Of a stretch of 64,000 nucleotides of DNA, positions 20,674 through 64,000 are shown in pieces. The DNA comes from Chondrosia reniformis (lineage: Eukaryota > Porifera > Demospongiae > Chondrillida > Chondrillidae). Numbering within the stretch: position 1 is the stretch's first letter; the number at the start of each line of letters is the position of its first letter. Under the pieces are notes generated by a model. It did not search any database. It was not told where the DNA came from and saw nothing but the letters and a program-made list of their open reading frames with translations. The translations under genes and the position numbers were made by a program. Where the stretch lies: positions 3,385,501 to 3,449,500 of the forward strand of contig OX359195.1 of the NCBI GenBank assembly GCA_947172415.1, given 5' to 3'.

Positions 20674-22072
20674 ATATACTAGTTATATGTACTACTTTAA
20701 TATACTAGTTGTGTGTAATGTTTGTTTGTGCTAGTTATATTTACTAGTTGTAGTTTTCTGTTTTATGTACTAGTTGTATGTACTAGTTGTATGTACTAGT
20801 AACTAGTTTTGTCTATAGTGACTACTTGTATGTACTAGTTGTATGTACTAGTAACTAGTTTTGTCTATAGTGACTACTTGTATGTACTAGGTGTATGTAC
20901 TAGTTGTATAAATATACTAGTAACTAATTGTATGTTCTAGCTATATGTACTAGCTGTATGTACTAGTTGTACGTACTAGTTGCATATCCTAGTAACTAAA
21001 TGTATGTATAAGTTGTATGTACTAGTTGTATTTACTAGTTGTATGTACTAGTTTTATGTACTAGATACTAGTTGAATATAGTAGTTGTATGTACTGGTTA
21101 TATGTATGTACTATAGTTGTGTGTAATATTTGTATGTCCTAGCTATATTTACTAGTTGTAGTTTCTAGTTGTATGTACTAGTTTTATCTACCAGTTGTAT
21201 ATATAGGTACCAGTTGTATGAACTAGTTGTATGTACTAGTTGTATATACTAGTTGTATGTACTAGTTGTATGTACAATTTGTATGCACTAGTTGTTTGTA
21301 GTTATTAGTTCTAATTGTATGTATTAGGTGTGTGTAATTGTACGTACTGGTTATATCTACTAGTTGTATATACTAGTTGCATATTCTGGTTGTAGTACTT
21401 TTTGTATGTATTAGTTCCATGTACTAGTTGTATGTACTAGTTTTGGGTAATATTTACTAGTTGAATATACTAGTTGTATGTACCAGTTATATGTGTACTA
21501 ATTGTATTTACTAATTGTGTGAAATTGTTGTATGTACTAGATATATTTACTAGTTGTTTGTACTAGTTATATCTACTAGTTGTATAAACTAGTAACTAAT
21601 TGTATATAAAGGTATTAGTTTTATGTATTAGTTATATACTAGTTGTATTACTAGTTGTATGTGCTACTTGAATGTACTAGTCGTATGTACTAGTTGTTCG
21701 TACTCGTTACTAGTTGTATGTTCCAGTTGCATGTACTAGGACTAGGTTACTAGTTGGAGTTTCTAGTTGAATGTACTCAATTCTAAGTAGTAGTTGCATG
21801 TTCCAATTGGATGTACTAATTGTTTGTACTAGTTATGTGCTAATTGTATGTTCTAGTTTTATGGACTAATTGGATGTACTAGTAACATACTAGTTGTAGG
21901 TTCTTGTTGTATGTAGTAGTTTTATGTACTTGTTATATGTACTAGTTGTATTTACTAGTTGTATGTACTGGTAGTACGTTCTAGTTTTTGTAATGTGTGT
22001 ATGTACTAGTTATATGTGTATGTACTTTTTTATGTACTAGTTATATGTGTATGTACTGGTTATATGAAAAAT
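20674..22072 (+). repeat. 13-bp minisatellite
   Basis: Degenerate GTACTAGTTGTAT array up to the PLE at 22073. No gene seen. Confidence 0.92.
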
Positions 22073-22212
22073 CTAAGATACCATTTTCCTACATGCTATA
22101 TGCCTATTCTGTAAAAAGAGCCTATAGGGGAACTAAACCTAAAGAGAGCTTTAGATGAAGATACAGTAGTCTTTTCTTCCTTCTTTTCCCTTCTTTCATC
22201 TTCTTCTCCACT

Positions 22213-22258
22213 GGGTCAGACAGCCGTTTCTGGGAATTCCACCCTTCATCAGTGATCC
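22213..22258 (-). ncRNA. hammerhead ribozyme motif in PLE (minus copy)
   Basis: On the minus strand: GGATCA, CTGATGA (22252-22246), a stem-loop with GGG/CCC, GAAAC, GGCTGTC, then TGACCC. This is the same motif as at 61848-61893; the cleavage triplet would be GTC. Stem I pairs 5 of 6 positions (one A-C mismatch). Stem III is very short, as in type I hammerheads of PLEs. Confidence 0.65.
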
Positions 22259-22513
22259 TGGGAGTCTTTGTCTTTTTCTTTATCTCGATCTTCTGTGAAT
22301 CCTTGGCTCACTATGCTAAATCTAGGGGCCTTATATACACTATTTTGGCGCCAAAAGTTAAATAAGGTGTTAACTAAGACACATGATGAAATTTAATTTT
22401 ATGAAAGGAATGTAGGTCCAATTAACTTTTATGAATTAATTATAAATCTATTAGTAATCTTGCTTGTACAGGTAAAACAGACTCAGCATAACTATAGACA
22501 CAAGTAGGACATA

Positions 22514-23446
22514 TTACGTAAGTCTACCCTTAGGTCTTCTAGTAGTAACATTTCTTTGGAGGTGGGGTAACACAATATGGGGTAACACAAGACAGTCCTT
22601 AAGCATACTAGCTACTTTTTGCTTATACTTGATTCTAACTAGAGGCTGCCGGGATAGGAAGGTTTTAAAGGTTGACTTTAGCTTAAAGTATTTGTAACCC
22701 TGCTTAATAAGCCTACTGCATAACTGCAAACTTTTAGCCTGAAAACTGGAGAAGTCACTACATATTCTAGAATACCTAATTAGTTGTGAAATAAAGACAC
22801 CATAGGCTGGGGTATTAGGAATATTACTATCTAAATGGGGGAAATTTACTATATCAAAGTTAAAGTCCTCTCGGTTATCATATACTTTAGTGATAAATTG
22901 ATTGTTAGTAATGGTTATATCTAAGTCTAAAAAGGGTGATTTTTTAGGGCTGGTATTTGTCTTTTTAAGAATAAGTTCTTTGGGGTAAATATCACTAATT
23001 GACAGTTCAAAATCCTTGTTGTTAATACATAAAAGGTCATCAATATACCTATAAGTATTGGAAAATTTAATAGCTAGGGTGATGTTATCCTTAAGTAGTC
23101 CTTTCATAAACTCATACTCATAGGCAAACAGAAAAAGATTAGCAACTACAGGGGCACAGTCAGTACCCATAGGGATACCTACACATTGCTTAAATACAGA
23201 ACCGTCTACACATACATAAATGTTGTCAATAAGGTAATTAAAGAGCTCTACTAAATGAACAGCTGTGACTGCTTTATTGGAGACATGTTTAGACCAAAAG
23301 GCTTTATCCTGACAGACTTCTATATATTGGGACTTTTTACAGGTATAGGCACTATGAATTAGGTTAGTAATCTTATCTTTTAGTAGATTATGGGGGATCG
23401 CTGTATATAATGTAGAAAAATCAAAACTAGCTAGCTGGGCTTTTCT
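22514..23446 (-). CDS. partial PLE reverse transcriptase
   Basis: Frame open from the truncation point to the stop at 22514. It starts in RT motif A (FDFSTLYTAIPHNLL, ~23425), which is degenerate PLE style with D then TLYT. It continues with GIPMGTDCAPVVANLF (motif B), YIDDLLCIN (motif C) and FLDLDI, then NFPHLDSNIPNTPAYGV and SQLIRYSRIC, the conserved tail of this RT group. No in-frame stop. The N-terminal GIY-YIG domain and RT finger regions present in the 62172 ORF are missing, so this product cannot be complete. The first in-frame ATG is at 23170, inside motif B, and is unlikely to be used. Confidence 0.85.
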   Translation of the reverse strand, partial: RKAQLASFDFSTLYTAIPHNLLKDKITNLIHSAYTCKKSQYIEVCQDKAFWSKHVSNKAVTAVHLVELFNYLIDNIYVCVDGSVFKQCVGIPMGTDCAPVVANLFLFAYEYEFMKGLLKDNITLAIKFSNTYRYIDDLLCINNKDFELSISDIYPKELILKKTNTSPKKSPFLDLDITITNNQFITKVYDNREDFNFDIVNFPHLDSNIPNTPAYGVFISQLIRYSRICSDFSSFQAKSLQLCSRLIKQGYKYFKLKSTFKTFLSRQPLVRIKYKQKVASMLKDCLVLPHIVLPHLQRNVTTRRPKGRLT

Positions 23447-27200: not shown

Positions 27201-28780
27201 ATTTATATATCACTCACTTTTGACTTCTCATATATTTGTTAAATATAAGTTATATAATATGCATATAAGAAATATGAAATATATATATATTATATATAAG
27301 ATTTATAATTTTTTTCTTTTTTCAAGTGACCCAGCCTGGTATTGAACCAGGGCATCCTCGTACCTTGTATCCAGACCATGTCATCCGTAACACCATCGGT
27401 CAGGTGGGTCACCAACTATATGTTGTAAATGAAGTCCTATTTATATAATACACACTTTTGACACTACATATATATATGTAATATAAAAGATATATAATAT
27501 GCATATAAAATAAATACCATATATAGGATATATATATGATATATAATACATATATAAAATGTATACTTTTTTCTTTTTCAGGTGACCCAACCTGGTATAA
27601 AACCAGGGCATCCTCCTACTTTGTATCCACACGATGTCATCGGTAACAACATCGGTCACGTGGGTCACCCTATATATGTTGTAAATGAAGTCCTATTTAT
27701 AGAACACACACTTTTGACACTACATATATATGTAATATATAAGATATATAATATGCATATAAGATATATACAATATATTTTATGTGTAAGATATATAATA
27801 CATATATAAGATGTATACTTTTTTCTTTTTTTTGTGACCCAGCCTGGTATTGAACCAGGGCATCCTCGTACCTTGTATCCAGACGATGGCATCCGTAACA
27901 TCAATGGTCATGTGGGTCACCCAAAATAGATGTTGTAAATCAAGTCCTATTTATATACCACTCACTTTTGACTCTACATATACATGTAATATATAAGATA
28001 TATAATATACATATAACATATATACAATATATATTACATATCAGATATAATACATATATAAGATTTATACTTTTTTCTTTTTTCAGGTGACCTAGCCTGG
28101 TATTGAACCAGGGCATCCTCGTACCTTGTATCCAGACGATGTCATCCGTAACAAAATCGGTCACGTGGGTCACCCAATATATGTTGTAAATGAATTCCTT
28201 TTTATATAACACACACTTTTGACACTACATATATATGTAGTATAAAAGATATATAATATGCATATCAGATAAATACAATATATATGATATAAATATATTA
28301 TATATAAGATGTATATAAGATGTATACCTTTTTCTTTTTTCAGGTGACCCAGCCTGGTTTTGAATCAGGGCACCCTCCTACCTTGTATCCAGACCATGTC
28401 ATCCGTAACGCCATCGGTCACGTGTGTCACCCAATATATGTTGTAAATGAAGTCCTATTTATATACCACTCACTTTTGACACTACATATATTTGTTATAT
28501 ATAAGATATACAATATGCATAAAAGATATATACAATATATATTATATATAAGATATATAATACATATATAAGATGTATAATTTTTTCTTTTTTAACATGA
28601 CCCAGCCTGGTATTGAACCACAGCATCCTCGTACCTTGTATCCAGAGAATGTCATCCGTAACACCATCGGTCACGTGGGTCACCAAATATATGTTGTAAA
28701 TGAAGTCCTATTTATATAACACACACTTTTGACACTACATATATATGTAATATAAAAGATATAATATGCATATCAGATAA
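24229..28780. repeat. ~251-bp AT-rich satellite, first block (about 18 monomers)
   Basis: Monomers are marked by GTGACCCAGCCTGGTATTG at about 24335, 24573, 24827, 25079, 25326, 25580, 25833, 26080, 26332, 26585, 26836, 27088, 27327, 27582, 27832, 28087, 28344 and 28597, with a mean spacing near 251 bp. Each has a conserved GC-richer core of about 110 bp and an AT-rich TATA/ATAT body. Three-monomer units repeat (25265-25830 resembles 26018-26585, offset ~753). Open frames on both strands come from the repeat and do not show a gene. Confidence 0.93.
24827..24911 (-). other. tRNA-like core of the 251-bp monomer (representative)
   Basis: On the minus strand the core begins TGACCCA and ends TGGGTCA, a 7-bp acceptor-like stem. 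It has a T-arm-like hairpin CCTGG-TTCAATA-CCAGG containing GGTTCAATACC, which matches the pol III B-box consensus. It also has a D-arm-like stem TGAC/GTTA around a GG-containing loop. The 85-nt length fits a class II tRNA, but the anticodon arm does not fold and one extra base separates the T arm from the acceptor, so it is not a working tRNA. A SINE-like or tRNA-derived origin is my inference. The same core occurs in nearly every monomer. Confidence 0.5.
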
Positions 28781-31756
28781 TATCATGTAAAAAATGGAGT
28801 CGGTTGATTCAGACACGAGCAGCGACATGAGTAGCGAGTTGATTCCCGACTGTGATCCTCAATCGCAAGTTCCTAACTTCTCCAAGAGCCAAGATACCCT
28901 ACGTGGTCTTTGCACTGTTTGCTGCTGGTCAATGCCTGTGAGAAGGGACGGTTTTGTTCGTGTGCACGGGCCTGTAGGGCACCGCTGCCAGGGCTCTGCG
29001 GAACTACCTCAAAGGGCACCGCACACTCTTCCATCTGATGGTGATTGTACCCAACAAGCTATCAGTCGACCCATCGACATGGACATCGGGTCACTCTCTC
29101 CCGATACTATATCTTTCCCGCGAGTTAAACTCTTGAGAAGACTTCCCCGTGCTTCCAGAGCTCTCGCCGCTAAGACGCTGAGCAACATACTCAACCAAAT
29201 AACTCGTTTAAACAGCCATGAGTCTTGGAAACGTCTTTTGTTATTCCCCAGTCGTTGTTTCCAGATTCCTAGAAGAGGGGGTCGCCGATGGAATCTAGCT
29301 AAGTTGGTTAAACAGCAACTTCTTGAGGAATCTGATCCACCTTCTGGGTCAGCTATTCCCAACCGCTCCACGTACCTCTCCCATTCTGCAGGTTTAGCCA
29401 ATTATTCTCTGTTTTGAAGGATAAGCACCCTCCCCCTCACCCAGACACTAAGTTTCAAGCCCCTCCACCTGCAGGGGAACATATAACTGATGCCTTATCA
29501 GTTTCTGAGGCAGACGTAGTCAAAGCCATCAAGTCCTTCCCAAATGACTCTGCAGGGGGCCCTGATGGCCTCCGCCCACAACATCTCAAAGACATGATTT
29601 CTACTATAGCTGGCCCTGAAGGTGAGAACTTGTTGTCTTCCCTAACATCTCTTGCTAACCTTGCTCTCTCTGGTGATATTCCTTCATCTGTACGCCCAAT
29701 TTTTTTTGGTGCCTCACTTACCATCCTTAATAAAAAAGGCGGAGGGGTTAGGCCTATTGCCATTGGCTGCACCCTTCGGCGTTTGGTGGCTAAACTAGCA
29801 AGCCATTCAGCCGTGGAGTCAGTTGGCACTTATCTTTCCCCTTTTCAGCTCGGCTCTGGAGTTCCATTTGGGGCAGAGGCTGCTGCCCATTCGGCACGAT
29901 CATATCTGAATGACTTACCTTCTTCACATATTTTGCTTAAGCTGGACTTTGAGAATGCCTTTAACACCATCAGACGTGACAAAGTCCTTGAAGCAGTGGC
30001 TGCCATTACACCCCAACTCCTCCCCTATGTATTTTCTTGCTATTCTTCTCCATCAACTCTTTACCTTCAGAATACTACTACTTTAGAATCTAGAGAAGGA
30101 ATTCAACAAGGGGACCCTCTAGGTCCTCTCCTCTTCTGTTTATCGATCCAACCCGTCATCCTCCAACTCAGCTCAGAGTTTCGTGTATTTTACTTGGATG
30201 ATGGAACATTGGGGGGCCTTGAGAAGGATGTTTTACATGACTTTTTTTCCATCAAACAGGAGTGCAGTTCTCTCGGTCTCAAACTTAATATTTCTAAATC
30301 AGAGCTCATTAGTTATGGCCCAGCTGGTGCCCAGCTGCTCAAGGTAGCACCCAATCTTCGCCAGATACACCCTAATGAAGCCACTCTATTGGGATCCCCT
30401 ATTGGCCAGCTGCCTTCCATCAATACTGCCCTATCCAATAAGATCCAAGCACTGAGAACCATGGGCTCCAGATTATCTCTCCTTTCCAAGCATGATGCCT
30501 TGCTTTTACTTGGGCACTGTTTTGCCCTTCCAAAGATTCTATATGTTCTGAGGACAGCACCCTGCTTCTTGTCACCCATTCTAACTTCCTTCGACCAGGA
30601 ACTACGCTCTTCTCTGAGTTTGATCCTTAATATTAACTTTGACTCGGACCCAATATGGTCCCAGGCTTCTTTGCCAGTGTCCTTTGGTGGTATTGGTGTT
30701 CGTAGTGCTATCCAGCTTGCTCCATCTGCCTACCTTGCTTCAGCTGCTGGAAGCACTATACTCTACTGAAACAGATCCTACCATGCAGGTTTCACAACAA
30801 CCTTTTCCCTGCTGTAACTGATGCAATTGAAACCTGGAAAGTTGGCCATAACTGCCCCCTACCCTCCTCCCCAGCAGATTGCCATCAAAAGGCTTGGGAC
30901 ATCCCAAGGGTTCAGAGTACTTTTGAAGCCATTCTATCTAATGCTCTGGATCCCAGATCTAGAGCTAGACTTCTTGCCACCTCAACAAAGGAATCGGGGG
31001 CGTGGCTTAATACCCTACCAGTATCTTCATTGGGTCTGCGACTGGATGATAATTCCATCGGGATTGCTGTGGGTCTCCGCCTTGGTGCCCCTTTATGCAG
31101 AGTACACACTTGCCAGCTTTGCGGTGGTGAGGTGGATGAGCTAGCCCTGCATGGCCTTAGTTGTAATAGGAGTGCTGGCCGTCATCCTCGCCATTCAGCG
31201 ATTAACGACATCCTCAAGAGAGGCCTTGCTCCCGCAGGAATCCCTTCGATTCTGGAGCCCCCAGGCCTTTCTAGGTGTGATGAAAAAGACCAGACGGTGT
31301 TACTGTAACACCCTGGAAGACAGGCCTAAACCTCATCTGGGATGCAACATGTGTGGATACCTTTGCCGCCTCCCACATCATACATGCTACAAGGGAGGCT
31401 AGAGCAGTTGCCAACCAAGCTGAGCTCAGGAAAAAGGCCAAATATAGCCTCCTCTCCAGATCAAACATCTTCCTCCCATTCGCAGTTGAGACATCTGGAG
31501 CCTTTGGACAAGAGGCTCTTCTATTTTGCTCCGACTTAGCCAGAAGAATACGATCCAGAAACCAAGAAAACAATTCTTATATATTCCTGATACAACAACT
31601 ATCTATTGCTATTCAAAGAGGCAACACTGCTGCAATCATGGGATCAGCCCAATGCAGCCTCTCTGAACTATTGGACAATGACTCTATTTATTGACATAAA
31701 ATTATGTTAGTGGTTTATTGTTATTCAATGTATGTTACAAAGATATACATGTATTG
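28781..31756 (+). mobile_element. full-length RLE-type non-LTR retrotransposon in the 251-bp satellite
   Basis: Bounded by an 8-bp direct repeat TCAGATAA (28773-28780 and 31757-31764), a target-site duplication that splits one satellite monomer. The element is about 2.98 kb, with a 13-nt leader before ATG at 28794 and about 60 bp of 3' UTR after the stop at 31692. It differs from the R2-like element at 1757 in N-terminus, RT and nuclease. The TSD and intact ends show the satellite blocks on either side were once one array. Confidence 0.9.
28794..31694 (+). pseudogene. single-ORF RLE retrotransposon protein with three frameshifts
   Basis: The N-terminus has a CCHC-like finger (CTVCCWSM...VHGPVGHRC, ~28910-28990). 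RT motifs are DSAGGPDGLRPQHL (~29550), LDFENAFNTI (motif A, ~29945), GIQQGDPLGPLLF (motif B, ~30100) and YLDD (motif C, ~30190). C-terminal C-x2-C...H...C (CQLCGGEVDELALHGLSC, ~31115) precedes RPDG...PW...WDATCVDTFAASH (~31290-31375), the restriction-like nuclease, and the frame ends at TGA 31692. The reading frame shifts near 29395, 30760 and 31288. Each shift equals loss of one base (frames 0, 2, 1, 0), and the last lies in an A5 run. There are otherwise no stops within the coding frame. Only these three single-base lesions separate it from an intact ORF, so it may be young, or the lesions may be sequencing errors. Confidence 0.87.
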
Positions 31757-34700
31757 TCAGATAAATACAATATATATGATATAAATATATTATATATAAT
31801 ATGTATATAAGATGTATACCTTTTTCTTTTTTCAGGTGACCCAGCCTGGTATTGAACCAGGGCACCCTCCTACCTTGTATCCAGACCATGTCATCCGTAA
31901 CACCATCGGTCACGTGTGTCACTCAATATATGTTGTAAATGAAGTCCTATTTATATATCACTCACTTTTGACTCTGCATATATTTGTTATATATCAGATA
32001 TATAATATGCATATAAGATAAATACCATATATATGATATATATAGATGATATATAAGATGTATATAAGATGTATACTTTTTCTTTTTTCAGGTGACCCAA
32101 CCTGTTATAAAACCAGGGCATCCTCGTACCTTCTATCCAGACGACGTCATCCGTAACACCATCGGTCACGTGGGTCACCCAATATATGCTGTAAATGAAG
32201 TCCTATTTATATATCACTCACTTTTGACACTACATATGTATGTAATATATAAGATATATAATATACATATAAGATATATACAATATATATTACATATAAG
32301 ATATATAATACATATTTAAGATTTGTGCTTTTTTTTCTTTTTTCAGGTGACCCAACCTGGTATAAAACCAGGGCATCCTCATACCTTGTATCCAGACGAT
32401 GTCATCCGTAACACCATCGGTCATGGGGGTCACCCAATATATGTTGTAAATGAAGTCCTATTTATATATCACTCACTTTTGACTCTACATATATATGTAA
32501 TATATAAGATATATAAGATATATAATATACATATAAGATATATACAATACATATTATATATACATATATATATATATACATATAAAAGATGTATACTTTT
32601 TTCTTTTTTCTTGTCACCCAGACCGGTATTGAATCAGGGCATCCTCGTACCTTGTATCCCGACGATGTCATCCGTAACACCATTGGTCACGTGGGTCACA
32701 CAATATATATTGTATGTGAAGTCCTATTTATATACCACTCACTTTTGACTCTACATATATATGTAATATATAAGATATATAATATACATATAAGATATAT
32801 ACCATATGTATTACATATAAGATATATAATACATATATAAGATGTATCCTTTTTTCTTTTTTCAGGTGACCCAACATAGTATTGAACTAGGGCATCCTCG
32901 TACCTTGTATCCAGACGATGGCATCCGTAACACCATCGGTCACGTGGGTCACGCAATATATGTTGTAAATGAAGTCCTATTTATATACCACTCACTTTTG
33001 ACTCTACATATATATGTAATATATAAGATATATAATATACATATAAGATATATACAATATATATTACATATATGATATATAATACGTATATAAGGAGTAT
33101 AATTTTTCCTTTCTTCAGAGGACCCAGCCTGGTATTGAACAAGGGCACCCTCGTACCTTGTATCCAGACGATGTTATCCGTAACATCATTGGTCACGTGG
33201 GTCACCCAATATATATTGTAAATGAAGTCCTATTTATATACCACTCACTTTTGACTCTACATATGTATGCAATATATAAGATATATTATATGCATATAAG
33301 ATATATACAATATATAGTACATATAAGATATATAATACATATATAAGACGTGCGCTTTTTTCTTTTTTCAGGTGACCAAACCTGGTAATGAACCAGGGCA
33401 TCCTCGTACCCTGTATCCAGACGATGTCATCTGTAACACCATTGGTCACCTGGGTCAACCAACATATGTTGTAAATGGAGTCCTTTTCATATACACACTT
33501 TTGACACTACATATATATGTAATATAAAAGATATATAATATGCATATAAGATAAATACCATATATGTAATATATATATAAGAAATATAATTCATATATAA
33601 GATGTAAACTTTTTCTTTTTTCAGGTGACCCAGCCTGGTATTGAACCAGGACACCCTCGTACCTTGTATCATGACGATGTCATCCGTAACACATATATAA
33701 GATGAATACTTTTTTCTTTTTTTCAGGTAACCCAGACTGGTATTGAAACAGGGCATCCTCATAATTTGTATCCGGAAAATGTCATCCGTAACACCATCGG
33801 TCACGTTGGTCACCCAATGTATGTTGTAAATGAAGTCCTATTTATATACCACTCACTTTTTACTCTGCATATATTTGTTATATATCAGATATATAATATG
33901 CATATAAGATAAATACCATATATATGATATATATAGATGATATATAATATGTATATAAGATGTATACTCTTTCTTTTTTCAGGTGACCCAACCTGTTATA
34001 AAACCAGGGCATCCTCGTACCTTCTATCCAGACGACGTCATCCGTAACACCATCGGTCACGTGGGTCACCCAATATATGCTGGGTATGAAGTCCTGTTTA
34101 TATATCACTCACTTTTGATACTACATATGTATGTAACATATAAGATATATAATATATATATTAGATATATACAATATATATTACATATAAGATATATAAT
34201 ACATATTTAAGATTTGTGCTTTTTTTTCTTTTTTCAGGTGACCCAACCTGGTATAAAACCAGGGCATCCTCATACCTTGTATCCAGACGATGTCATCCGT
34301 AACACCATCGGTCATGGGGGTCACCCAATATATGTTGTAAATGAAGTCCTATTTATATATCACTCACTTTTGACTCTACATATATATGTAATATATAAGA
34401 TATATAAGATATATAATATACATATAAGATATATACAATACATATTATGTATACATATATATATATATACATATAAAAGATGTATACTTTTTTCTTTTTC
34501 TTGTCACCCAGACCGGTATTGAATCAGGGCATCCTCGTACCTTGTATCCCGACGATGTCATCCGTAACACCATTGGTCACGTGGGTCACACAATATATAT
34601 TGTATGTGAAGTCCTATTTATATACCACTCACTTTTGACTCTACATATATACGTAATATATAAGATATATAATATATATATAAGATATATACCATATGTA

Positions 34701-37990: not shown

Positions 37991-38729
37991 GAGAATAATA
38001 AACATTTTCTACAAAAATAGTAGAAGATGTAGGGATGGCACAAAAAGCATAGAAACAAGAAAGGGATGTTACACAGTGAAGAATTATTTATGCATGAATC
38101 ATACAACACCTTTGCTTGTAGGATTCGTGCATAAATAATTCTTCACTGTGAAACATCCCTTTCTTGTTTCTATGCTTTTTGTGCCATCCCTACATCTTCT
38201 ACTATTTTTGTAGAAAATTTTTATTAGTCTCTAGTTTCTGTACTTTTTATGGAGCATAAGCTAGGAATTATATAATAGACCATTTTGGTTTCACAATCTT
38301 CGAATGATTATGACGTCATTAAAATGGCGAATTTATTGAATTTATTGACTCTTGGGCCACGAAAACCGTCATGCTCAATAATAGCGTTATCGCTCTCGCT
38401 TCTACAAAAGAATACAGCGCGGAAAATTTGGAATATTTTCGCTTCAGAAGTAGCCCGAAAACTTACTTCCTTGTTTAGTTACAGCAGGCGAAGAAGATGA
38501 AGAAGATGAAGAAGAAAAAAACGAAAATGGGATATTTCAAAGTTCGCTTATTTGCTAGCGAAACATGGTCGCTTGCCTTTAAGGCCAGTTTATAGCATGG
38601 CTGGTGTATTTTTAACTATACATAGCTTTTTTTCGGCGATTTTCAGCCTATTTCGGATTTTCGCTCCTATACCAATGTATAGGGAAAACGAAACAACCCG
38701 TACCATCCCTACATAGAGAGTCTCTCTGA
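37991..38729. mobile_element. foldback element 2 with ~110-bp hairpin
   Basis: Homologous to 36014-36785. The left arm (37991-38099) and right arm (38122-38231) again pair almost perfectly, although the stem sequence differs from copy 1. The body carries a perfect cAMP-response-element-like TGACGTCA followed by AAAATGGCG (~38310). The monomer sequence on either side (CCCAATATA and TATTGTATATG) indicates a TA-type target. A 71-codon ORF from 38285 has no recognisable motif. Confidence 0.8.
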
Positions 38730-40563: not shown

Positions 40564-40926
40564 GTTTAATGATGATGACATCGATGCTTTAAGATCGGCT
40601 TTTGATCTTAAAGTTCCCCTATTTTTTCCATATTAGTGGTCAGCCACACTCTTAGCTGTACCCCTTATCTGCTGATAAGGAAACCACAAGCTTTTTTGCT
40701 TCTGGGAGTACTTATTAGCAGACTAGCCACTCAAACTTCCATCGTATGCCATACTGATGAGTCCTAATAAGGACGAAACAGCTGTCTATGGCTCGACTAT
40801 CTTTTTGAGTGGCTAGGGGGAGACTCTGGTTCCCATCAAGCGAACTTCGGTTCCGCCCATGAGCTCATTGCGCTCCTCAGGGGACATGAGTGGGCAGGGG
40901 TAATACCCTGTGTTTAATGATGATGA
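40564..40926 (+). mobile_element. ~348-bp hammerhead-ribozyme element (retrozyme-like)
   Basis: Non-satellite insertion delimited by the 15-bp direct repeat GTTTAATGATGATGA (40564-40578 and 40912-40926), 348 bp apart. No coding potential. It is full of short hairpins: CTTTAAGATC/GATCTTAAAG (40587-40613), GTGG/CCAC (40636-40647), CCTTATC/GATAAGG (40663-40680), then a full type I hammerhead (40723-40817). Size, structure and ribozyme match animal retrozymes, small non-coding retroelements that spread through self-cleaved circular RNA. The ATGATGATGA at the ends may be a terminal repeat, a simple tail or a target duplication. A single ribozyme copy means that excision of a circular RNA would need a multimeric source. 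Confidence 0.75.
40723..40817 (+). ncRNA. type I hammerhead ribozyme
   Basis: Every core element is present. Stem I is bipartite: outer CTAGCCACTCAAA (40723-40735) with TTTGAGTGGCTAG (40805-40817), an internal loop, and inner GCCATA (40748-40753) with TATGGC (40787-40792). Then come CTGATGA (40754-40760), stem II GTCC/GGAC with loop TAATAA (40761-40774), and GAAA (40775-40778). Stem III is the self-complementary ACAGCTGT (40778-40785), followed by cleavage site GTC (40784-40786). Cleavage is expected after C40786. Stem III can form only 2 bp with an AGCT loop in one molecule, but pairs fully between two molecules, as in retrozyme and PLE hammerheads that work as dimers. The internal loop of stem I facing loop II is where natural hammerheads make tertiary contacts. 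Confidence 0.92.
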
Positions 40927-47912: not shown

Positions 47913-49177
47913 AAGTATAACTAGTAAATACAACAGTTACACCCTTCTACTACATACAACTAGTACATATACCTACATACAATAGTACATAAAACAAGTA
48001 CATACAACTAGTACATATAACCAGTACATACAACTACTTATTAGTACATACAACTAGAACCTTCAACTAGTAAATATACCTAGTACATTAAAATTAGACA
48101 AAACTAGTACATACAAGTAGTACATATAACTACATACAACTAGTTCAAACAACTAGTACATACAACTACTAGTAAATCAAACTAGTACCTAAAACTAGTA
48201 CATACAACTAGTACATATAACTACATACAACTAGTACATTCAACTAGTAAATACAGATTGTTACTAGTCCATACACCTAGTATATACAACTAGTACATGC
48301 AACTTGTACATACAAACTAGCACATACAACTAGGACATACTACTAGGACATACTACCAGTACATACAACTATATAGCACATACAACTAGTACTACAACTA
48401 GGATATAGAACTAGTACATATAACTAGTACATATAACTAGTCCATACAACTAATACATATAACCAGTACATACACTTAAAACTAGTACATATATATGGTA
48501 CATAAAACTAGAACATACTACTAGTATATACATACAACTAGTATATAAATACAACTAGTATATATAAAGAGTACATAAAACTATTACAAACAACTATTGC
48601 TAACAACTAGTAAATAACTAGTTCATACAATTAGAACATACAACTGGAACATACAACTGGCACACAAATACTACAAACAAGTAGTAAATATGACTACATA
48701 CAACTAGTTCAAACAACTAGTACATACAACTAGTTCATACAACTTCTTCATAGAACTAGTGCATAAAACTAGTTACTAGTGCATCAAAAAAGTACATAAA
48801 AGTAGTACATACAACTAGTAAGTACAACTAGTAAATATAACTAGTACATACAACAATTACATACAACTAGTTCATACAACTAGTAGGTACAACCAGTAAA
48901 TACAGATAGTTACTAGTACATACACCTAGTACATACAAGTGGTACATACAACTTGTACATATAACTAGTACATACAACTACTTTCTAGTAGATACGACTA
49001 GTACATACAACTAGTTCATACAACAAGTACATACTACTATATAGTACATAAAACTAGTACTACAACTAGGACCTAGAACTAGTACATATGACTAGTACAT
49101 ATAACTAGTACATATAACTTGTACATATAACTAGTTCATACAACTAGTACATATAACCAGTGCATACATTTATAACT
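47913..49177 (-). repeat. 13-bp minisatellite
   Basis: ATACAACTAGTAC-type array up to the PLE insertion. It ends in the duplicated target CATTTATAACT (49167-49177). Confidence 0.92.
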
Positions 49178-49867
49178 CACTACATAATAATAATTCACTA
49201 CAATTCTAATCAGCATCCGTCCACCAAGATTGGCACCATCTTATGCCTCAAAAAAAGGGCTGAACACCTATGCAAAGGACAATCATTACAAAGAGAACTC
49301 GAACACATCAGAACCACCTTCATTGCCAATGGCTACCAAGAAGGACTTGTAAGAAGAACACTAAAGAAGAAGAAAAGAAGGAATGATGATCTGATTAAAG
49401 AAGGAGAACGTGTCCTCTGCTTACCTTACATCAAAGGTTTAAGTGAAACCCTACAAAGAGTTTGCAGACCACTGGAAGTGAGAATCAGAAACAAGGCAAC
49501 TAACACTCTTCGCTCCTTATTGACCAGGATAAAGAAACCACTACCAGAGACTCAGAATACAGGAGTCATTTATGAAATACCTTGCAGATGCGGACAAGTG
49601 TACATTGGTGAAACATGGAAAACCCTCATTGACAGGATGAAGGAACATAAAAGGTCAGAACAAAGAATTGACACCAACAACTCTCTAGCTGTACATGTTA
49701 AAGAAACCTTGCATGACATCTCATGGGAGAATGCTAAAGTATTACAGGAAGAACAACACAAAATCAGCAGAAAGATCAAGGAGGCTATACTAATACAGAA
49801 AACACCTTGTATGAACATGGACTTAGGAATGAATGTGGATCCTATTTGGAAGGACATACTTAATTAA
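49178..49867 (+). CDS. PLE C-terminal region with GIY-YIG endonuclease, partial
   Basis: Open frame covering the linker (IGTILCLKKRAEHLC) and VLCLPYIKGLSETLQRVC, the conserved stretch before the nuclease in conventional PLEs. The GIY-YIG domain follows: GVIYEIPCRCGQVYIGET, DRMKEHKR, NSLAVHV, then RKIKEAILI with the catalytic-type Glu. TAA is at 49865. The RT is absent because of 5' truncation, and the remaining frame has no stop. GIY-YIG nicks target DNA to prime reverse transcription. The start is not native. Confidence 0.9.
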   Translation, partial: HYIIIIHYNSNQHPSTKIGTILCLKKRAEHLCKGQSLQRELEHIRTTFIANGYQEGLVRRTLKKKKRRNDDLIKEGERVLCLPYIKGLSETLQRVCRPLEVRIRNKATNTLRSLLTRIKKPLPETQNTGVIYEIPCRCGQVYIGETWKTLIDRMKEHKRSEQRIDTNNSLAVHVKETLHDISWENAKVLQEEQHKISRKIKEAILIQKTPCMNMDLGMNVDPIWKDILN

Positions 49868-50109
49868 TTAACACTACCACCCTATTTAATTCTTTTCATC
49901 CTAATTAATATTTGGCGCAATTCACTATTACATCATCACTCACCACCTGCCACCCAACATCTATTTAAACACACTTGTGCTTCTCTTTTCATTATTGCTG
50001 GTGAAGACCTTAGGGTCGAAACGTTCAATTCTAAAGAATATTCCTGTTGCTGTAGCTCAATAATCATCAATTAACTAATTATGATCGCAACAACTACTCC
50101 ATATCACTT
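49178..50109 (+). mobile_element. 5'-truncated canonical Penelope-like element with 11-bp TSD
   Basis: Flanked by CATTTATAACT at 49167-49177 and 50110-50120. It contains the end of the pol ORF (GIY-YIG domain) and a ~240-bp 3' UTR. The 3' UTR holds CTGGTGAAGACCTTAGGGTC followed by GAAACGTT (~50000-50030), a motif that recurs in the PLE fragment at 53719. Here the nuclease is C-terminal, the conventional PLE order, so this is a different PLE lineage from the one at 60663-64000. Confidence 0.87.
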
Positions 50110-60100: not shown

Positions 60101-60662
60101 AACCAGAAACTACTACATACAACTCATATATACAACTAGTTCATACAACCAGTACACACAACATAGTACATTAAACTTGTACATATAACTAGTACATAAA
60201 ACTAATACATACAATTAGTACATATAACTAGAACATACTACTTTTACATACAACTAGTCCATACAACTAATAGTTAAATTAGGACATAAAATTAGTTCAT
60301 GCAACTAGTACGATGAACCGGTTCATACACATATAACTAGTACATAAAAATAGTACATTCACCTAGACTACATTCTACCAGAAGCTAGTGCAAACAACTA
60401 ATTCATACATCTAGTTAGTAGTACATACAATTAGTACATACAAGAAGTACATATAAGTAGTGCATACAGCTAGTAAATACAATTAGTACATACAACAATT
60501 ACACACAACTAGTATATAGAACTAGTCCATATAACTACATAAAGGAAGTACATACAACTAGTACAAACAACTAGTAAATACAGATTGTAACTAGTACATA
60601 CACCTAGTACATAGAACTAGTACATGCAACTAGTACATATAACATCTACAAACAACTAGTAC
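54121..60662 (-). repeat. 13-bp minisatellite, 6.5-kb block
   Basis: ATACAACTAGTAC-type array. Recurrent markers such as GTAAATACAGATTGTTACCAG (for example near 55970, 56130, 56550, 57950, 58390 and 58840) show higher-order repeats of variable spacing. A short exact repeat occurs at 54650-54790. No gene. Confidence 0.92.
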
Positions 60663-61592
60663 AAAGCCCAGCTAGCTAGTTTTGATTTTTCTACATTATA
60701 TACAGCGATCCCCCATAATCTACTAAAAGATAAGATTACTAACCTAATTCATAGTGCCTATACCTGTAGAAAGTCCCAATATATAGAAGTCTGTCAGGAT
60801 AAAGCCTTTTGGTCTAACAATGTCTCCAATAAAGCAGTCACAGCTGTTCATTTAGTAGAGCTCTTTAATTACCTTATTGACAACATTTATGTATGTGTAG
60901 ACGGTTCTGTATTTAAGCAATGTGTAGGTATCCCTATGGGTACTGACTGTGCCCCTGTAGTTGCTAATCTTTTTCTGTTTGCCTATGAGTATGAGTTTAT
61001 GAAAGGACTACTTAAGGATAACATCACCCTAGCTATTAAATTTTCCAATACTTATAGGTATATTGATGACCTTTTATGTATTAACAACAAGGATTTTGAA
61101 CTGTCAATTAGTGATATTTACCCCAAAGAACTTATTCTTAAAAAGACAAATACCAGCCCTAAAAAATCCCCCTTTTTAGACTTAGATATAACCATTACTA
61201 ACAATCAATTTATCACTAAAGTATATGATAAGCGAGAGGACTTTAACTTTGATATAGTAAATTTCCCCCATTTAGATAGTAATATTCCTAATACCCCAGC
61301 CTATGGTGTCTTTATTTCACAACTAATTAGGTATTCTAGAATATGTAGTGACTTCTCCAGTTTTCAGGCTAAAAGTTTGCAGTTATGCAGTAGGCTTATT
61401 AAGCAGGGTTACAAATACTTTAAGCTAAAATCAACCTTTAAAACCTTCCTATCCCGGCAGCCTCTAGTTAGAATCAAGTATAAGCAAAAAGTAGCTAGTA
61501 TGCTTAAGGACTGTCTTGTGTTACCCCATATTGTGTTACCCCACCTCCAAAGAAATGTTACTACTAGAAGACCTAAGGGTAGACTTACGTAA
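60663..61592 (+). CDS. partial PLE reverse transcriptase
   Basis: Open frame from the satellite junction to TAA at 61590. Motif A FDFSTLYTAIPH (~60684), then VDGSVFKQCVGIPMGTDCAP (motif B, ~60897-60956), YIDDLLCIN (motif C, ~61062), FLDLDI and NFPHLDSNIPNTPAYGV. It lacks the GIY-YIG domain and RT fingers, so it is not functional alone. It is the same protein as at 22514-23446 apart from one residue, and it presumably represents the missing C-terminal half of the ORF that leaves the window at 64000. Confidence 0.87.
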   Translation, partial: KAQLASFDFSTLYTAIPHNLLKDKITNLIHSAYTCRKSQYIEVCQDKAFWSNNVSNKAVTAVHLVELFNYLIDNIYVCVDGSVFKQCVGIPMGTDCAPVVANLFLFAYEYEFMKGLLKDNITLAIKFSNTYRYIDDLLCINNKDFELSISDIYPKELILKKTNTSPKKSPFLDLDITITNNQFITKVYDKREDFNFDIVNFPHLDSNIPNTPAYGVFISQLIRYSRICSDFSSFQAKSLQLCSRLIKQGYKYFKLKSTFKTFLSRQPLVRIKYKQKVASMLKDCLVLPHIVLPHLQRNVTTRRPKGRLT

Positions 61593-61847
61593 TATGTCCT
61601 ACTTGTGTCTATAGTTATGCTGAGTCTGTTTTACCTGTACAAGCAAGATTACTAATAGATTTATAATTAATTCATAAAAGTTAATTGGACCTACATTCCT
61701 TTCATAAAATTAAATTTCATCATGTGTCTTAGTTAACACCTTATTTAACTTTTGGCGCCAAAATAGTGTATATAAGGCCCCTAGATTTAGCATAGTGAGC
61801 CAAGGATTCACAGAAGATCAAGATAAAGAAAAAGACAAAGACTCCCA

Positions 61848-61893
61848 GGATCACTGATGAAGGGTGGAATTCCCAGAAACGGCTGTCTGACCC
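61848..61893 (+). ncRNA. hammerhead ribozyme motif in PLE pseudo-LTR
   Basis: GGATCA (61848-61853), CTGATGA (61854-61860), stem II GGG/CCC closed by an A-A mismatch (61861-61875), GAAAC (61876-61880), a minimal stem III ACGG/CTGT, GTC with cleavage after C61887, then TGACCC (61888-61893) pairing with GGATCA (5 of 6). Type I hammerheads with tiny stem III are an established feature of PLEs. The weaker points are stem II closure and the A-C mismatch in stem I. An identical motif is in the minus copy (22213-22258). Confidence 0.68.
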
Positions 61894-62040
61894 AGTGGAG
61901 AAGAAGATGAAAGAAGGGAAAAGAAGGAAGAAAAGACTACTGTATCTTCATCTAAAGCTCTCTTTAGGTTTAGTTCCCCTATAGGCTCTTTTTACAGAAT
62001 AGGCATATAGCATGTAGGAAAATGGTATCTTAGATTTTTC

Positions 62041-64000
62041 ATGTGTTTACTTAGCCTCATGTTAGTCCTTGGTGGCTGTTGAGCCATTGTTGCCTTTAAA
62101 TAGTCCCGGCTACATGTAATAGGTTAAGTCTTTGTGGACTAGCTTGTCTAGTCCTTGACCCATTTCCAATCATGACAAGTACAAAGTATAGAGATAGGAT
62201 ACCGGCTGGGAGGTCGCCCGGGTTAACAAGCTCCCCGTCATTAGGTAAAGGTAGGGTGCCTGGTGATGAAAAGTTAGCTAACTCTCCCCCATCTGTAGGT
62301 AGAGGGGTGCCTACTGGTGGGCAAGCTAGCCCCTCACTAGTTAAGAAGTGTAGTAATAAGCGGTGTAAAACATGTCCCTCTTTAGTTACTGGCCCTACTT
62401 TTAAGAGTTCAGTTACTGGCAGGACCTATCAAGTCCGTAGCCCTTGTGGTCCCCTAGGATGCCAGAGTAGGAATGTTGTGTATCTTATTACTTGTAAACA
62501 ATGTGATGTACAGTATGTAGGAGAAACCTCTCAGATGCTTAGGAGTAGAATGAACAACCATAGGACTAGTACCAAAGGTTTTAAGCCACTGTATCTTTAC
62601 AATCACTTTAATTCTGATAACCATAGTTTTGATGATGCCTTGATTATGCCCATAGAACAGATACCTGAGACACCTAATTCTACTAGCCTCAGACTACTGA
62701 GAGAAGCGTTCTGGTACAAGGAACTCTGCTCTATTTACCCATATGGACTTAACGATAACATTAAAGGCGTTGGCAATATTTCGAAACTTAAAAAAGAAAT
62801 CATCGTATGGAACCTTTTTAATCGCTTATCTCATAAAAGACGGCATCGGCGCTCCAATCTAAAATCGACAGGCAGTAGTAATAACGCTGCCTACGACCCT
62901 AAATGGCTCAAAGAACGACTACCACTTTACAAGAACGTTGGCTTTCTAGCCAAACTTAAACGCGATACTTTTGCATTACCAGCTCGACACCTTCATCGTT
63001 TGTTAAACTCGGTACAATGTCTCATCGATACCCCAGAAACACCTTTTCCGCTTAGACTTATGCTAATGATTAAAGACGTTATTAAAGCACGCGCTTCAGC
63101 CAGCCTTCCCAAACACCCAACGAAAACGACAAGTCCAGAAGGGTTTCTTAAAATCGTGTTTCGTAATAAAGGTGTAGAAAAAATAGGCCTCTCAGGTATC
63201 TTAAACCAAAAGTTAGTGTTAGAAACTGTCCCACCCTTTATACAAAACAAAGAGCCCCCATGTGTAGTATATAAGTATACCCAACCAATAGGACCTCAAA
63301 TCTTTAACTTTTCACAAGCCTCCAAGTCAGATGTTTTTAGAAAACCAGAACCATGTGAGTGTCACAAGTCCCCCTTCATTTACAAGCCCCTAGGCCATGT
63401 TTTAACAGGTGATCTACGTATTGTTAGTAACCCAAAACTTAGAAAACTTCTTAAGAAAGGACCAAAATTTAGAGAACCTAATAACTTTAATTGGGTAACT
63501 GCTTTAAAAATGTGTAAGGAAGGTCTTAGAAAATATAAGATTACCTGGGCCCGTAGAGAAAATGTATCTACTTCTGTATTTAGTGAGTGGGAAAATGCTG
63601 TACTTAAGAAAATTAATGATAGGATCTCTAAGCTGTCTAAATCGTATACCAAATCCTCAGTAGCCAAGAAGACCCTTACTTGCCCTAAAATTAAGAAATT
63701 CTTAGCAGACCTACATGATAAGTATGTTATAGCCCCTGCCGATAAGGCCTCTAATAATATAATTTTTATATGTAAGTCCTACTATAGACAAATTATTAAT
63801 GAAGAACTAGGCAGTACCTCCACTTATGCTAAATGTGCAGTAGAACCCCAACAGTTAATTAGGAAACACATAGATTTCTTAAAACTAGAGAACTTAGAAC
63901 CTAAACCAGACTGGTGTAACCTTCCCTCTTTTTACTGGATGCCTAAGCTACATAAGAACCCTTACAGCTACAGATTCATAGCCGCCTCTCACAAATGTAC
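62041..64000 (+). mobile_element. Naiad-type Penelope-like element, apparently intact, running out of the window
   Basis: It begins immediately after the 3' end of the upstream copy with a 131-bp leader, then the ORF at 62172. The 609 codons visible have no stop or frameshift, unlike every other autonomous element here except the short PLE remnants. It is the best candidate for an active element in the window. Confidence 0.85.
62172..64000 (+). CDS. PLE polyprotein: N-terminal GIY-YIG nuclease then reverse transcriptase (partial)
   Basis: The first ATG after the junction opens a frame still running at the window end (at least 609 aa). Residues ~60-111 hold a Cys-rich region (KKCSNKRCKTC, then C92, C97, C108, C111). 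The GIY-YIG core is VYL (103-105) and YVG (115-117), with Arg in RSRMNNHR (~124-131) and catalytic-type Glu178 in LREAFW. A basic linker follows (KRRHRRS), then a long middle region with FRNKGVEKIGL and TGDLRIVSNPKLR. The start of the RT comes next: DKYVIAPADKASNNIIFI, then FYWMPKLHKNPYSYRFIAAS. The nuclease precedes the RT, the reverse of conventional PLEs, and the finger Cys residues and overall plan fit the permuted Naiad clade. Expected role: DNA nicking and target-primed reverse transcription. CpG use shifts sharply within the ORF (see findings). Confidence 0.9.
   Translation, partial: MTSTKYRDRIPAGRSPGLTSSPSLGKGRVPGDEKLANSPPSVGRGVPTGGQASPSLVKKCSNKRCKTCPSLVTGPTFKSSVTGRTYQVRSPCGPLGCQSRNVVYLITCKQCDVQYVGETSQMLRSRMNNHRTSTKGFKPLYLYNHFNSDNHSFDDALIMPIEQIPETPNSTSLRLLREAFWYKELCSIYPYGLNDNIKGVGNISKLKKEIIVWNLFNRLSHKRRHRRSNLKSTGSSNNAAYDPKWLKERLPLYKNVGFLAKLKRDTFALPARHLHRLLNSVQCLIDTPETPFPLRLMLMIKDVIKARASASLPKHPTKTTSPEGFLKIVFRNKGVEKIGLSGILNQKLVLETVPPFIQNKEPPCVVYKYTQPIGPQIFNFSQASKSDVFRKPEPCECHKSPFIYKPLGHVLTGDLRIVSNPKLRKLLKKGPKFREPNNFNWVTALKMCKEGLRKYKITWARRENVSTSVFSEWENAVLKKINDRISKLSKSYTKSSVAKKTLTCPKIKKFLADLHDKYVIAPADKASNNIIFICKSYYRQIINEELGSTSTYAKCAVEPQQLIRKHIDFLKLENLEPKPDWCNLPSFYWMPKLHKNPYSYRFIAASHKC

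What the first reader, a model, noticed from the sequence alone, without database searches (positions are those of the whole stretch)
40564..40926. 348-bp retrozyme-like element carrying a textbook type I hammerhead, embedded in satellite
Seen directly: complete hammerhead core (CTGATGA, GAAA, GTC), stem I with 13 bp outer and 6 bp inner helices around an internal loop, a stem II/loop II, and a self-complementary stem III (ACAGCTGT), all inside a hairpin-rich non-coding insert bounded by GTTTAATGATGATGA repeats. Known: animal retrozymes and PLEs carry such hammerheads, and retrozymes are thought to move through circular RNA copied by PLE enzymes. Inference: this is an active or recently active retrozyme family whose helper may be the PLE at 62041. 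The repeat bounding the unit is unusual and may show how the monomer length (348) is set.
Basis: partly seen in the sequence, partly recalled or inferred. Interest (0 to 1): 0.88.

Follow-up and report, generated by a model that had tools for sequence, protein, structure and literature searches.

The report
Sponge retrozyme with Penelope-style insertion ends
This is a copy of a small non-coding mobile element with a self-cutting RNA motif, found many times in what looks like a sponge genome, and the way its copies are inserted points to Penelope-type enzymes as the machinery that moves it.

Summary
A type I hammerhead (RF00163, 37.1 bits) lies at 40748-40792 in a 348-nt non-coding unit inside an AT-rich satellite. 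The genome (117.38 Mb, 15 contigs; lengths match the sponge Chondrosia reniformis) holds 447 places with the ribozyme core (up to 2 mismatches). It is an animal-type (non-LTR) retrozyme.

In 42 scored loci (41 fetched plus the window) the copies show an anatomy I did not find described for retrozymes. In 25 of 25 two-armed loci the retrozyme arms lie head to head, up to 2.3 monomers each. 59 of 67 outer 3' ends fall at two places about 50 nt apart (A, near m14-19; B/C, m44-74), on either side of or inside a hairpin. 18 of 20 two-armed loci (32 of 35 with hand-read and coordinate-only cases) use A at one end and B/C at the other. Short target duplications flank the compounds (23 of 37). No 5' end (0 of 56) lies at the ribozyme cut.

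This is the published Penelope signature: two internal start sites (the 'tail') and extension of both DNA strands. Best reading: circular or multimeric retrozyme RNA is copied by a Penelope-type RT from both target ends. The 15-bp 'boundary repeat' is one lap plus 15 nt. Which element helps is unproven.

The parts
40564..40926 (+). Retrozyme copy: one 348-nt monomer (m1 = 40564) plus 15 nt of a second lap
40748..40792 (+). Type I hammerhead ribozyme; expected cleavage after GTC, 40786/40787
   Evidence: RF00163, 37.1 bits, E 1.1e-5
40723..40816 (+). Hammerhead with its extended outer stem I (13 bp, m160-172 with m241-253)
   Evidence: circular and linear fold
40577..40582 (+). Site A (m14-19): one RT start place, on the 3' side of a small hairpin GATG-ATGA-CATC; the 3' end of this copy is the same site in the next lap (40926)
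   Evidence: 29 of 67 outer 3' ends in m10-30; local structure
40586..40614 (+). Stable hairpin between sites A and B
   Evidence: folds and alignment of 21 monomers
40625..40637 (+). Site B (m62-74): second RT start place, in an unpaired loop after AGTTCCCCTAT
   Evidence: 30 of 67 outer 3' ends in m36-76; P(unpaired) 0.87-0.99 for m57-71
60660..63998 (+). Candidate helper: young element read as Penelope-like, GIY-YIG before the RT (two tandem pieces, cut by the window end)
   Evidence: GIY-YIG PF01541 just at its cut-off; RT piece RVT_1 18.5 bits, below its 29.6 cut-off, no relevant PDB relative; otherwise by eye; copies identical over 581 nt
61970..62046 (+). 3' region of that element: AGTTCCCCTAT shared with site B; 3' ends near 61991 and at 62042-62046
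   Evidence: 16 of 41 matches end at 62043-62046; two small copies end near 61991; motif
22064..23440 (-). 5'-truncated copy of the same element, 3' end at the downstream site (5' limit by eye)

Best explanation
The feature is a copy of a non-autonomous animal retrozyme moved by Penelope-type RT/endonuclease. Transcripts are cut by the hammerhead and closed into 348-nt circles (inferred), or stay multimeric. A Penelope-type enzyme cuts both target strands about 7-13 bp apart and primes reverse transcription from both 3' ends, inside the RNA, at start places on either side of a hairpin (A, m14-19; B, m62-74; a few at m44-57). One target end starts at A, the other at B/C. Each cDNA runs for a part of a lap up to 2.3 laps, and the two are joined at their 5' sides, leaving a head-to-head compound with outward 3' ends and a target duplication. 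The window copy is the simple case: one arm, one lap plus 15 nt. It was probably then carried along by duplication of its satellite. Shown here: copies, orientation, fixed outer ends, A/B pairing, duplications, read-through of the cleavage site, multi-lap arms. Inferred: circles, RT identity, one RNA or two per insertion.
For: Hammerhead and copies. Head-to-head arms: 25 of 25 two-armed loci are minus-then-plus, 0 the other way. Outer 3' ends: 29 of 67 in m10-30, 30 of 67 in m36-76, 8 elsewhere (the window and L057, probably one event, are both counted). A/B pairing: BLAST-only 18 of 20, permutation P 0.0005; with hand-read ends 24 of 27, P 1e-4; with 8 coordinate-only loci 32 of 35, P 5e-6. 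Target duplications: 23 of 37 flank pairs share 7 nt or more, against 2.2 (maximum 8) when flanks are swapped between loci. Template: 0 of 56 5' ends within 10 nt of the cleavage site, 3.4 expected; 25 arms in 23 loci exceed 360 nt, longest 804; laps of one arm 98.0% alike against 92.3% between loci. Precedent: an Anolis Penelope-like protein cuts and extends both strands and starts RT at two adjacent internal RNA sites that match the genomic tail (PMC11167929, parts 1-2 of 4); bdelloid Penelopes show head-to-head inverted pLTRs, a 31-bp tail optionally on one of them, and 8-10 bp duplications (PMC3846280, passages).
Against: 3 of 35 classified insertions break the A/B rule (L047 B/B, L029 two non-A ends, L016 A/A); L016 abuts an inverted Penelope-like fragment. 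One of the 32 followers (C3:5191102, m39) is weak. 8 of 67 outer ends lie elsewhere, 5 of them in copies whose main arm is only 81-85% identical. 14 of 37 flank pairs share fewer than 7 nt; some of the 12 hand-corrected ends were set with the duplication in view. The Anolis study saw no difference in start site between the two strands in vitro. No RNA data. Laps exceed the closest other locus in only 4 of 7 loci and arms in 3 of 13, so one circle per insertion is not shown. The window element that I read as Penelope-like has weak family support (GIY-YIG just at its cut-off, RT below its cut-off), and the motif it shares is short (23 of 5000 shuffles for the tails, 54 of 1000 for the whole regions). 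No control with other repeats of this genome was run.
Confidence: 0.8

Rival explanations
1. A retrozyme moved by a LINE-type RT; inverted arms come from ordinary twin priming.
For: Two RT pieces over the PF00078 cut-off are in the window (29414-30769, 4056-4880); twin priming also gives head-to-head inversions (recalled); PMC4918200 compared the 15-bp duplications of Nematostella repeats with LINEs (passages).
Against: Twin priming joins parts of one linear RNA at scattered internal sites (recalled). Here arms often overlap, run over more than one lap, and outer ends sit at fixed sites in 59 of 67 cases.
Confidence: 0.12
2. The compounds arise by self-priming: one cDNA folds back and is copied, giving an inverted second arm.
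For: PMC3846280 interprets the palindromes of bdelloid Penelopes by self-priming on an antisense template (passages).
Against: Fold-back would give arms with the same outer end. Outer ends differ in 18 of 20, and the inner ends of the two arms mostly lie at unrelated monomer positions.
Confidence: 0.05
3. Satellite DNA only: the unit spreads by unequal exchange and duplication, and the hammerhead is a relic.
For: The window and C14 copies share their 5' junction and left flank; a set of places on C8 and C12 looks like one duplicated insertion.
Against: Only 8 of 46 sequences have satellite flanks; flanks of the others differ from each other (read), many with their own target duplications.
Confidence: 0.02

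Closest known systems
Metazoan non-LTR retrozymes with type I hammerheads (Cervera and de la Pena 2020, PMC7229834; parts 1-4 of 6 read)
   Same: Canonical type I hammerhead, 170-400 nt unit, no ORF, head-to-tail units, strongly self-paired RNA, co-existing Penelope-like elements; that paper already names PLEs a strong candidate helper
   Different: That text describes tandem arrays ('inverted' and 'sponge' occur 0 times in the main text; its supplement was not seen). Here arms are head to head with fixed start sites and at most about 2.3 units
Penelope-like elements: Poseidon of Anolis (PMC11167929, parts 1-2 of 4 read) and Penelope of Adineta vaga (PMC3846280, passages)
   Same: Two adjacent internal RT starts giving an optional tail, extension of both strands, head-to-head inverted ends, tail on one end, short target duplications, hammerhead in the Anolis element
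   Different: The retrozyme has no RT or endonuclease; tail about 50 nt instead of 30-40; canonical rather than minimal hammerhead; the template is a 348-nt ring or multimer
Plant LTR retrozymes (PMC4918200, passages; PMC7761336, passages)
   Same: Hammerhead-bearing non-autonomous elements with circular RNA
   Different: Type III hammerheads, LTRs, PBS/PPT, 4-bp duplications; PBS and PPT were not searched for here
LINE-1 5' inversions by twin priming (recalled)
   Same: Head-to-head geometry from priming on both target strands
   Different: Second site fixed here; arms overlap and often exceed one template length

Membership tests
Metazoan non-LTR retrozyme | Canonical type I hammerhead | tested here: met
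   RF00163 37.1 bits over the gathering score; loop-loop contacts not tested
Metazoan non-LTR retrozyme | Monomer about 150-450 nt, GC under 50%, no ORF | tested here: met
   348 nt, GC 46.0%; no ORF of 150 aa or more there
Metazoan non-LTR retrozyme | Many dispersed copies with head-to-tail units | tested here: met
   the window copy itself is 1.04 units
Metazoan non-LTR retrozyme | Target-site duplication (when present) | tested here: met
   23 of 37 against 2.2 by swapping
Metazoan non-LTR retrozyme | Self-cleavage and abundant circular RNA | not testable with these tools
   needs RNA-seq or in vitro transcription
Penelope-like element | RT with GIY-YIG endonuclease encoded in the element | tested here: not met
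   no ORF of 150 aa or more in the unit; so it is not itself a PLE
Penelope-type mobilisation | Two adjacent internal RT start sites (tail) | tested here: met
   59 of 67 outer 3' ends at places about 50 nt apart
Penelope-type mobilisation | Head-to-head inverted ends, tail on one of them | tested here: met
   25 of 25 head to head; 18 of 20 one end of each kind
Penelope-type mobilisation | Helper present and RT start motif shared | tested here: inconclusive
   young candidate element with weak family matches; AGTTCCCCTAT shared, 23 of 5000 and 54 of 1000 shuffles
LINE-dependent SINE | Single 3' end at a poly(A) or simple-repeat tail, variable 5' truncation (recalled) | tested here: not met
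   fixed internal 3' ends on both sides of one insertion

The most novel reading that the evidence does not exclude
Each insertion is made by a paired enzyme on one small RNA ring: one RT subunit extends one target strand from site A while its partner extends the other strand from site B, 50 nt away, so each site is used once. This programmed two-site priming would explain the A/B rule, the optional 'tail' of Penelope elements, and why retrozymes and Penelopes share the same head-to-head ends.
Probability: 0.35. Interest if true: 0.8.

Novelty: new variant of a known kind. Interest (0 to 1): 0.62.

Why it matters
Who moves animal retrozymes is open in the papers read: PMC7229834 names PLEs only as a strong candidate. 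Here the insertions carry a Penelope fingerprint that can be read from assembled genomes, so the question can be tested in any animal genome with retrozymes. The A/B rule adds a constraint on the little-understood Penelope mechanism: the two target strands seem to use different start sites.

Tried and rejected
(1) Tunicate origin (14 chromosomes, 117 Mb): a search for GH6 cellulase found nothing, but the control rang nowhere, so this shows nothing. (2) GTTTAATGATGATGA as a boundary or target repeat: rejected, since it recurs inside multi-unit arms and is start site A. (3) A linear monomer cut by the ribozyme as template: disfavoured, 0 of 56 5' ends near the cut. (4) One circle per insertion from lap and arm identities: not decided. 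(5) Stacked 5' ends near m1-9: 8 in one 10-nt window, P 0.03 against uniform; too weak to use. (6) Second 3' end of the Penelope-like element downstream of 62046: 40 of 41 matches run to or within 1 nt of the query end, but the tool scores long matches first, so this says nothing about short copies. (7) Exact hammerhead core in viral contigs: 0 matches. (8) Papers holding both 'retrozyme' and 'head-to-head': 0. Searches listed no paper whose title or abstract start reports this anatomy in retrozymes or a sponge retrozyme; apart from the papers named as read in part, only the listings were seen. (9) RT family of the window element: no NCBIfam match, no relevant PDB relative, RVT_1 below its cut-off. 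(10) A control set of non-Penelope elements in this genome was not run.

Full report
What is there. The window lies on contig 7 of a 117,379,552-base genome in 15 contigs. The total and the contig lengths (C1 10.41, C2 10.29, C3 9.42, C4 8.95, C6 8.73 and C7 8.46 Mb) fit the kidney sponge Chondrosia reniformis, odChoReni1.1: 117.37 Mb, 14 chromosomes plus a mitochondrial genome, N50 8.46 Mb (PMC12181767, passages). This is an inference from lengths, not a sequence test. At 40564-40926 a 348-nt unit with 46% GC sits in a period-13 satellite with 29% GC on its left side. It holds a complete type I hammerhead (RF00163, 37.1 bits, E 1.1e-5), no ORF of 150 aa or more, and folds much better than shuffles (z -5.87). 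The first 15 nt recur exactly after the unit.

Copies. A DNA search gave 108 matches in the 40 candidates that the tool scored, out of 1051 first-look candidates. The core CTGATGAGTCC-N6-GGACGAAAC with up to 2 mismatches occurs 447 times (237 plus, 210 minus), 91 of them exact (my count of the list), and 0 times in the reversed control. These are cores, not insertions: one insertion can hold several. RF00163 itself gives 72 matches, 51 over its cut-off, with 73 of 11921 candidates scored. I fetched 20 loci and 38. Many of these overlap in place; L050 repeats the event of L049, and L057 probably that of the window copy. They were picked by best score or exact core, so young copies are over-represented.

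Anatomy of an insertion. 46 sequences (45 loci plus the window; repeated places left out) were aligned to the repeated monomer, and 42 were scored automatically. Four were left out: L050 as a duplicate, L022 and L030 as another family, and L058, where only one short arm was found. Of the 42, 25 have two arms. In all 25 the left arm is minus and the right arm plus, so the arms lie head to head with 3' ends outward. 67 outer 3' ends were counted: 29 in m10-30, 30 in m36-76, and 8 elsewhere (m190, 269, 283, 339, 340, 340, 347, 348); 5 of these 8 are in copies whose main arm is 81-85% identical, where the alignment may stop early. Thus 59 of 67 ends fall into 62 of 348 positions. Most hand values are tighter: A at m14-19, B at m62-74, and four at m44-57 (typed list).

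The A/B rule. By BLAST ends alone, 20 two-armed loci have both ends in these ranges, and 18 of the 20 have one A and one B/C (permutation P 0.0005). Adding ends and short arms read by eye (L016, L026, L033, L036, L044, L048, L058) gives 24 of 27. Adding 8 loci known only by match coordinates gives 32 of 35, P 5e-6; one of these 8 (C3:5191102, end at m39) is weak. L032, L012 and C14:2872254 could not be classified and were dropped, as were places on C8 and C12 whose arm ends repeat those of L049/L050 and which I took as duplicates of one event (on C8 by coordinates only). The exceptions are L047 (B/B), L029 (two non-A ends) and L016 (A/A); L016 ends against an inverted fragment of the Penelope-like element. 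A mini insertion of about 80 nt in L044, itself inside a fragment of that element, obeys the rule.

Target duplications. For 37 sequences (9 of 46 dropped for unclear ends, duplication or another family; 12 ends corrected by hand, some with the duplication in view), 23 flank pairs share a run of at least 7 nt within 24 nt, against 2.2 on average and 8 at most in 500 swaps of right flanks between loci. Clean examples around two-armed compounds are AAACTATAAG (L046), AACCTTA (L031), AGAATTA (L025) and CAAAAGAAGA (L040, seen but missed because my hand-set end overshot). 8 of the 46 sequences have satellite flanks, where such matches can be accidental; the window copy is one of these. Because the duplications enclose both arms, the compound was most likely inserted in one event.

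The template. 25 arms in 23 loci exceed 360 nt; the longest has 804 nt or 2.3 monomers. None of 56 5' ends (typed) lies within 10 nt of the cleavage site m223/224, where 3.4 would be expected. A linear monomer ending at the cut is therefore not the usual template; a ring or an uncut multimer is. Laps within one arm are 98.0% alike (22 pairs), arms of one locus 96.9% (36 pairs, a few of them other copies or pieces in the same locus), different loci 92.3% (3759 pairs; medians). But lap identity beats the closest other locus in only 4 of 7 loci, and arm identity in 3 of 13, so one ring per insertion is not shown. In the circular fold, B lies in an unpaired loop (m57-71) and A on the 3' side of a small hairpin; a stable hairpin (m23-51) stands between them.

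Comparison with Penelope. The purified Poseidon protein of Anolis cuts and extends both strands of its target and starts RT at two adjacent internal RNA sites; the stretch between them is the genomic tail. That paper saw no difference in start site between the two strands in vitro, which does not speak for a strand-coupled A/B rule (PMC11167929, parts 1-2 of 4). Adineta Penelopes have head-to-head inverted pLTRs, a 31-bp tail optionally on one of them, and 8-10 bp duplications (PMC3846280, passages). The retrozymes here match these points. PMC7229834 (parts 1-4 of 6) proposes PLEs as a strong candidate for mobilising animal retrozymes but describes tandem repeats, not head-to-head compounds ('inverted' occurs 0 times in its main text; its supplement was not seen).

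Candidate helper. The window holds an element that I read as Penelope-like: GIY-YIG (PF01541, 22.6 bits, just at the cut-off) before an RT piece that reaches RVT_1 only below its cut-off (18.5 of 29.6 bits) and has no relevant PDB relative. I recall this domain order for the Naiad group (Craig et al. 2021, not read). It has copies identical over 581 nt elsewhere, so it was active very recently. 16 of 41 matches end at 62043-62046, and two small copies end near 61991: again two 3' ends about 50 nt apart. The upstream one follows AGTTCCCCTAT, which also precedes site B of the retrozyme. That 11-mer is shared by chance in 23 of 5000 shuffles for the tails, and in 54 of 1000 for the whole non-coding regions. 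A second Penelope-type piece, by eye only, lies at 49160-49867 (no Pfam hit over a cut-off); its 3' region shares only 7 nt with the retrozyme tail. Which element serves the retrozyme is open.

The window copy. It is a single-armed insertion: start at A, one lap, 15 nt more. Its sister on C14 shares the 5' junction and the left flank (94% over 300 nt; control satellite segments 69% on average, 82% at most); the right flank (82%) equals the best control. The satellite therefore probably carried one insertion to a second chromosome. A set of places on C8 and C12 with the same arm ends looks like another such case.

Verdict. The new part is the insertion anatomy, which points to Penelope-type machinery, and the A/B rule, which I did not find for retrozymes in the papers searched. 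For Penelopes, a tail on one of the inverted ends is already in print.

Noticed in passing
L022:2999-3240 and L030:2966-3200 (C1:1460499, C2:2590466): A second, divergent retrozyme family (83% alike to each other over 246 nt): type I hammerhead over the cut-off, 3' end after a CTCCCC-TTTT motif resembling site B (by eye).
   Followed up: partly
L044:734-910: A mini retrozyme insertion of about 80 nt (two arms of about 33 and 48 nt) inside a fragment of the Penelope-like element.
   Followed up: partly
L006, L044, L045, L056, L058: Short pieces of the 3' region of the Penelope-like element (about 50-220 nt) are scattered in the fetched loci and several end at two sites about 50 nt apart.
   Followed up: partly
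window 49160-49867 and 49998-50022: Piece read by eye as the C-terminal part of another Penelope-type element, with a minimal CTGGTGA...GAAA hammerhead-like motif downstream.
   Followed up: partly
G000 C7:3589013-3589713: By coordinates, a copy of the Penelope-like element ends 232 nt before a retrozyme hammerhead core; possibly a chimera or a nested insertion. The DNA could not be fetched.
   Followed up: no
window 24530-28779 and 31759-33692: Tandem arrays of an about 252-bp unit with a tRNA-like stretch (GGTATTGAACCAGGGCATCC, by eye); ARAGORN calls no tRNA.
   Followed up: no
window 38033-38189: Long foldback (matches MIR5020 below its cut-off), perhaps a small inverted-repeat transposon.
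   Followed up: no
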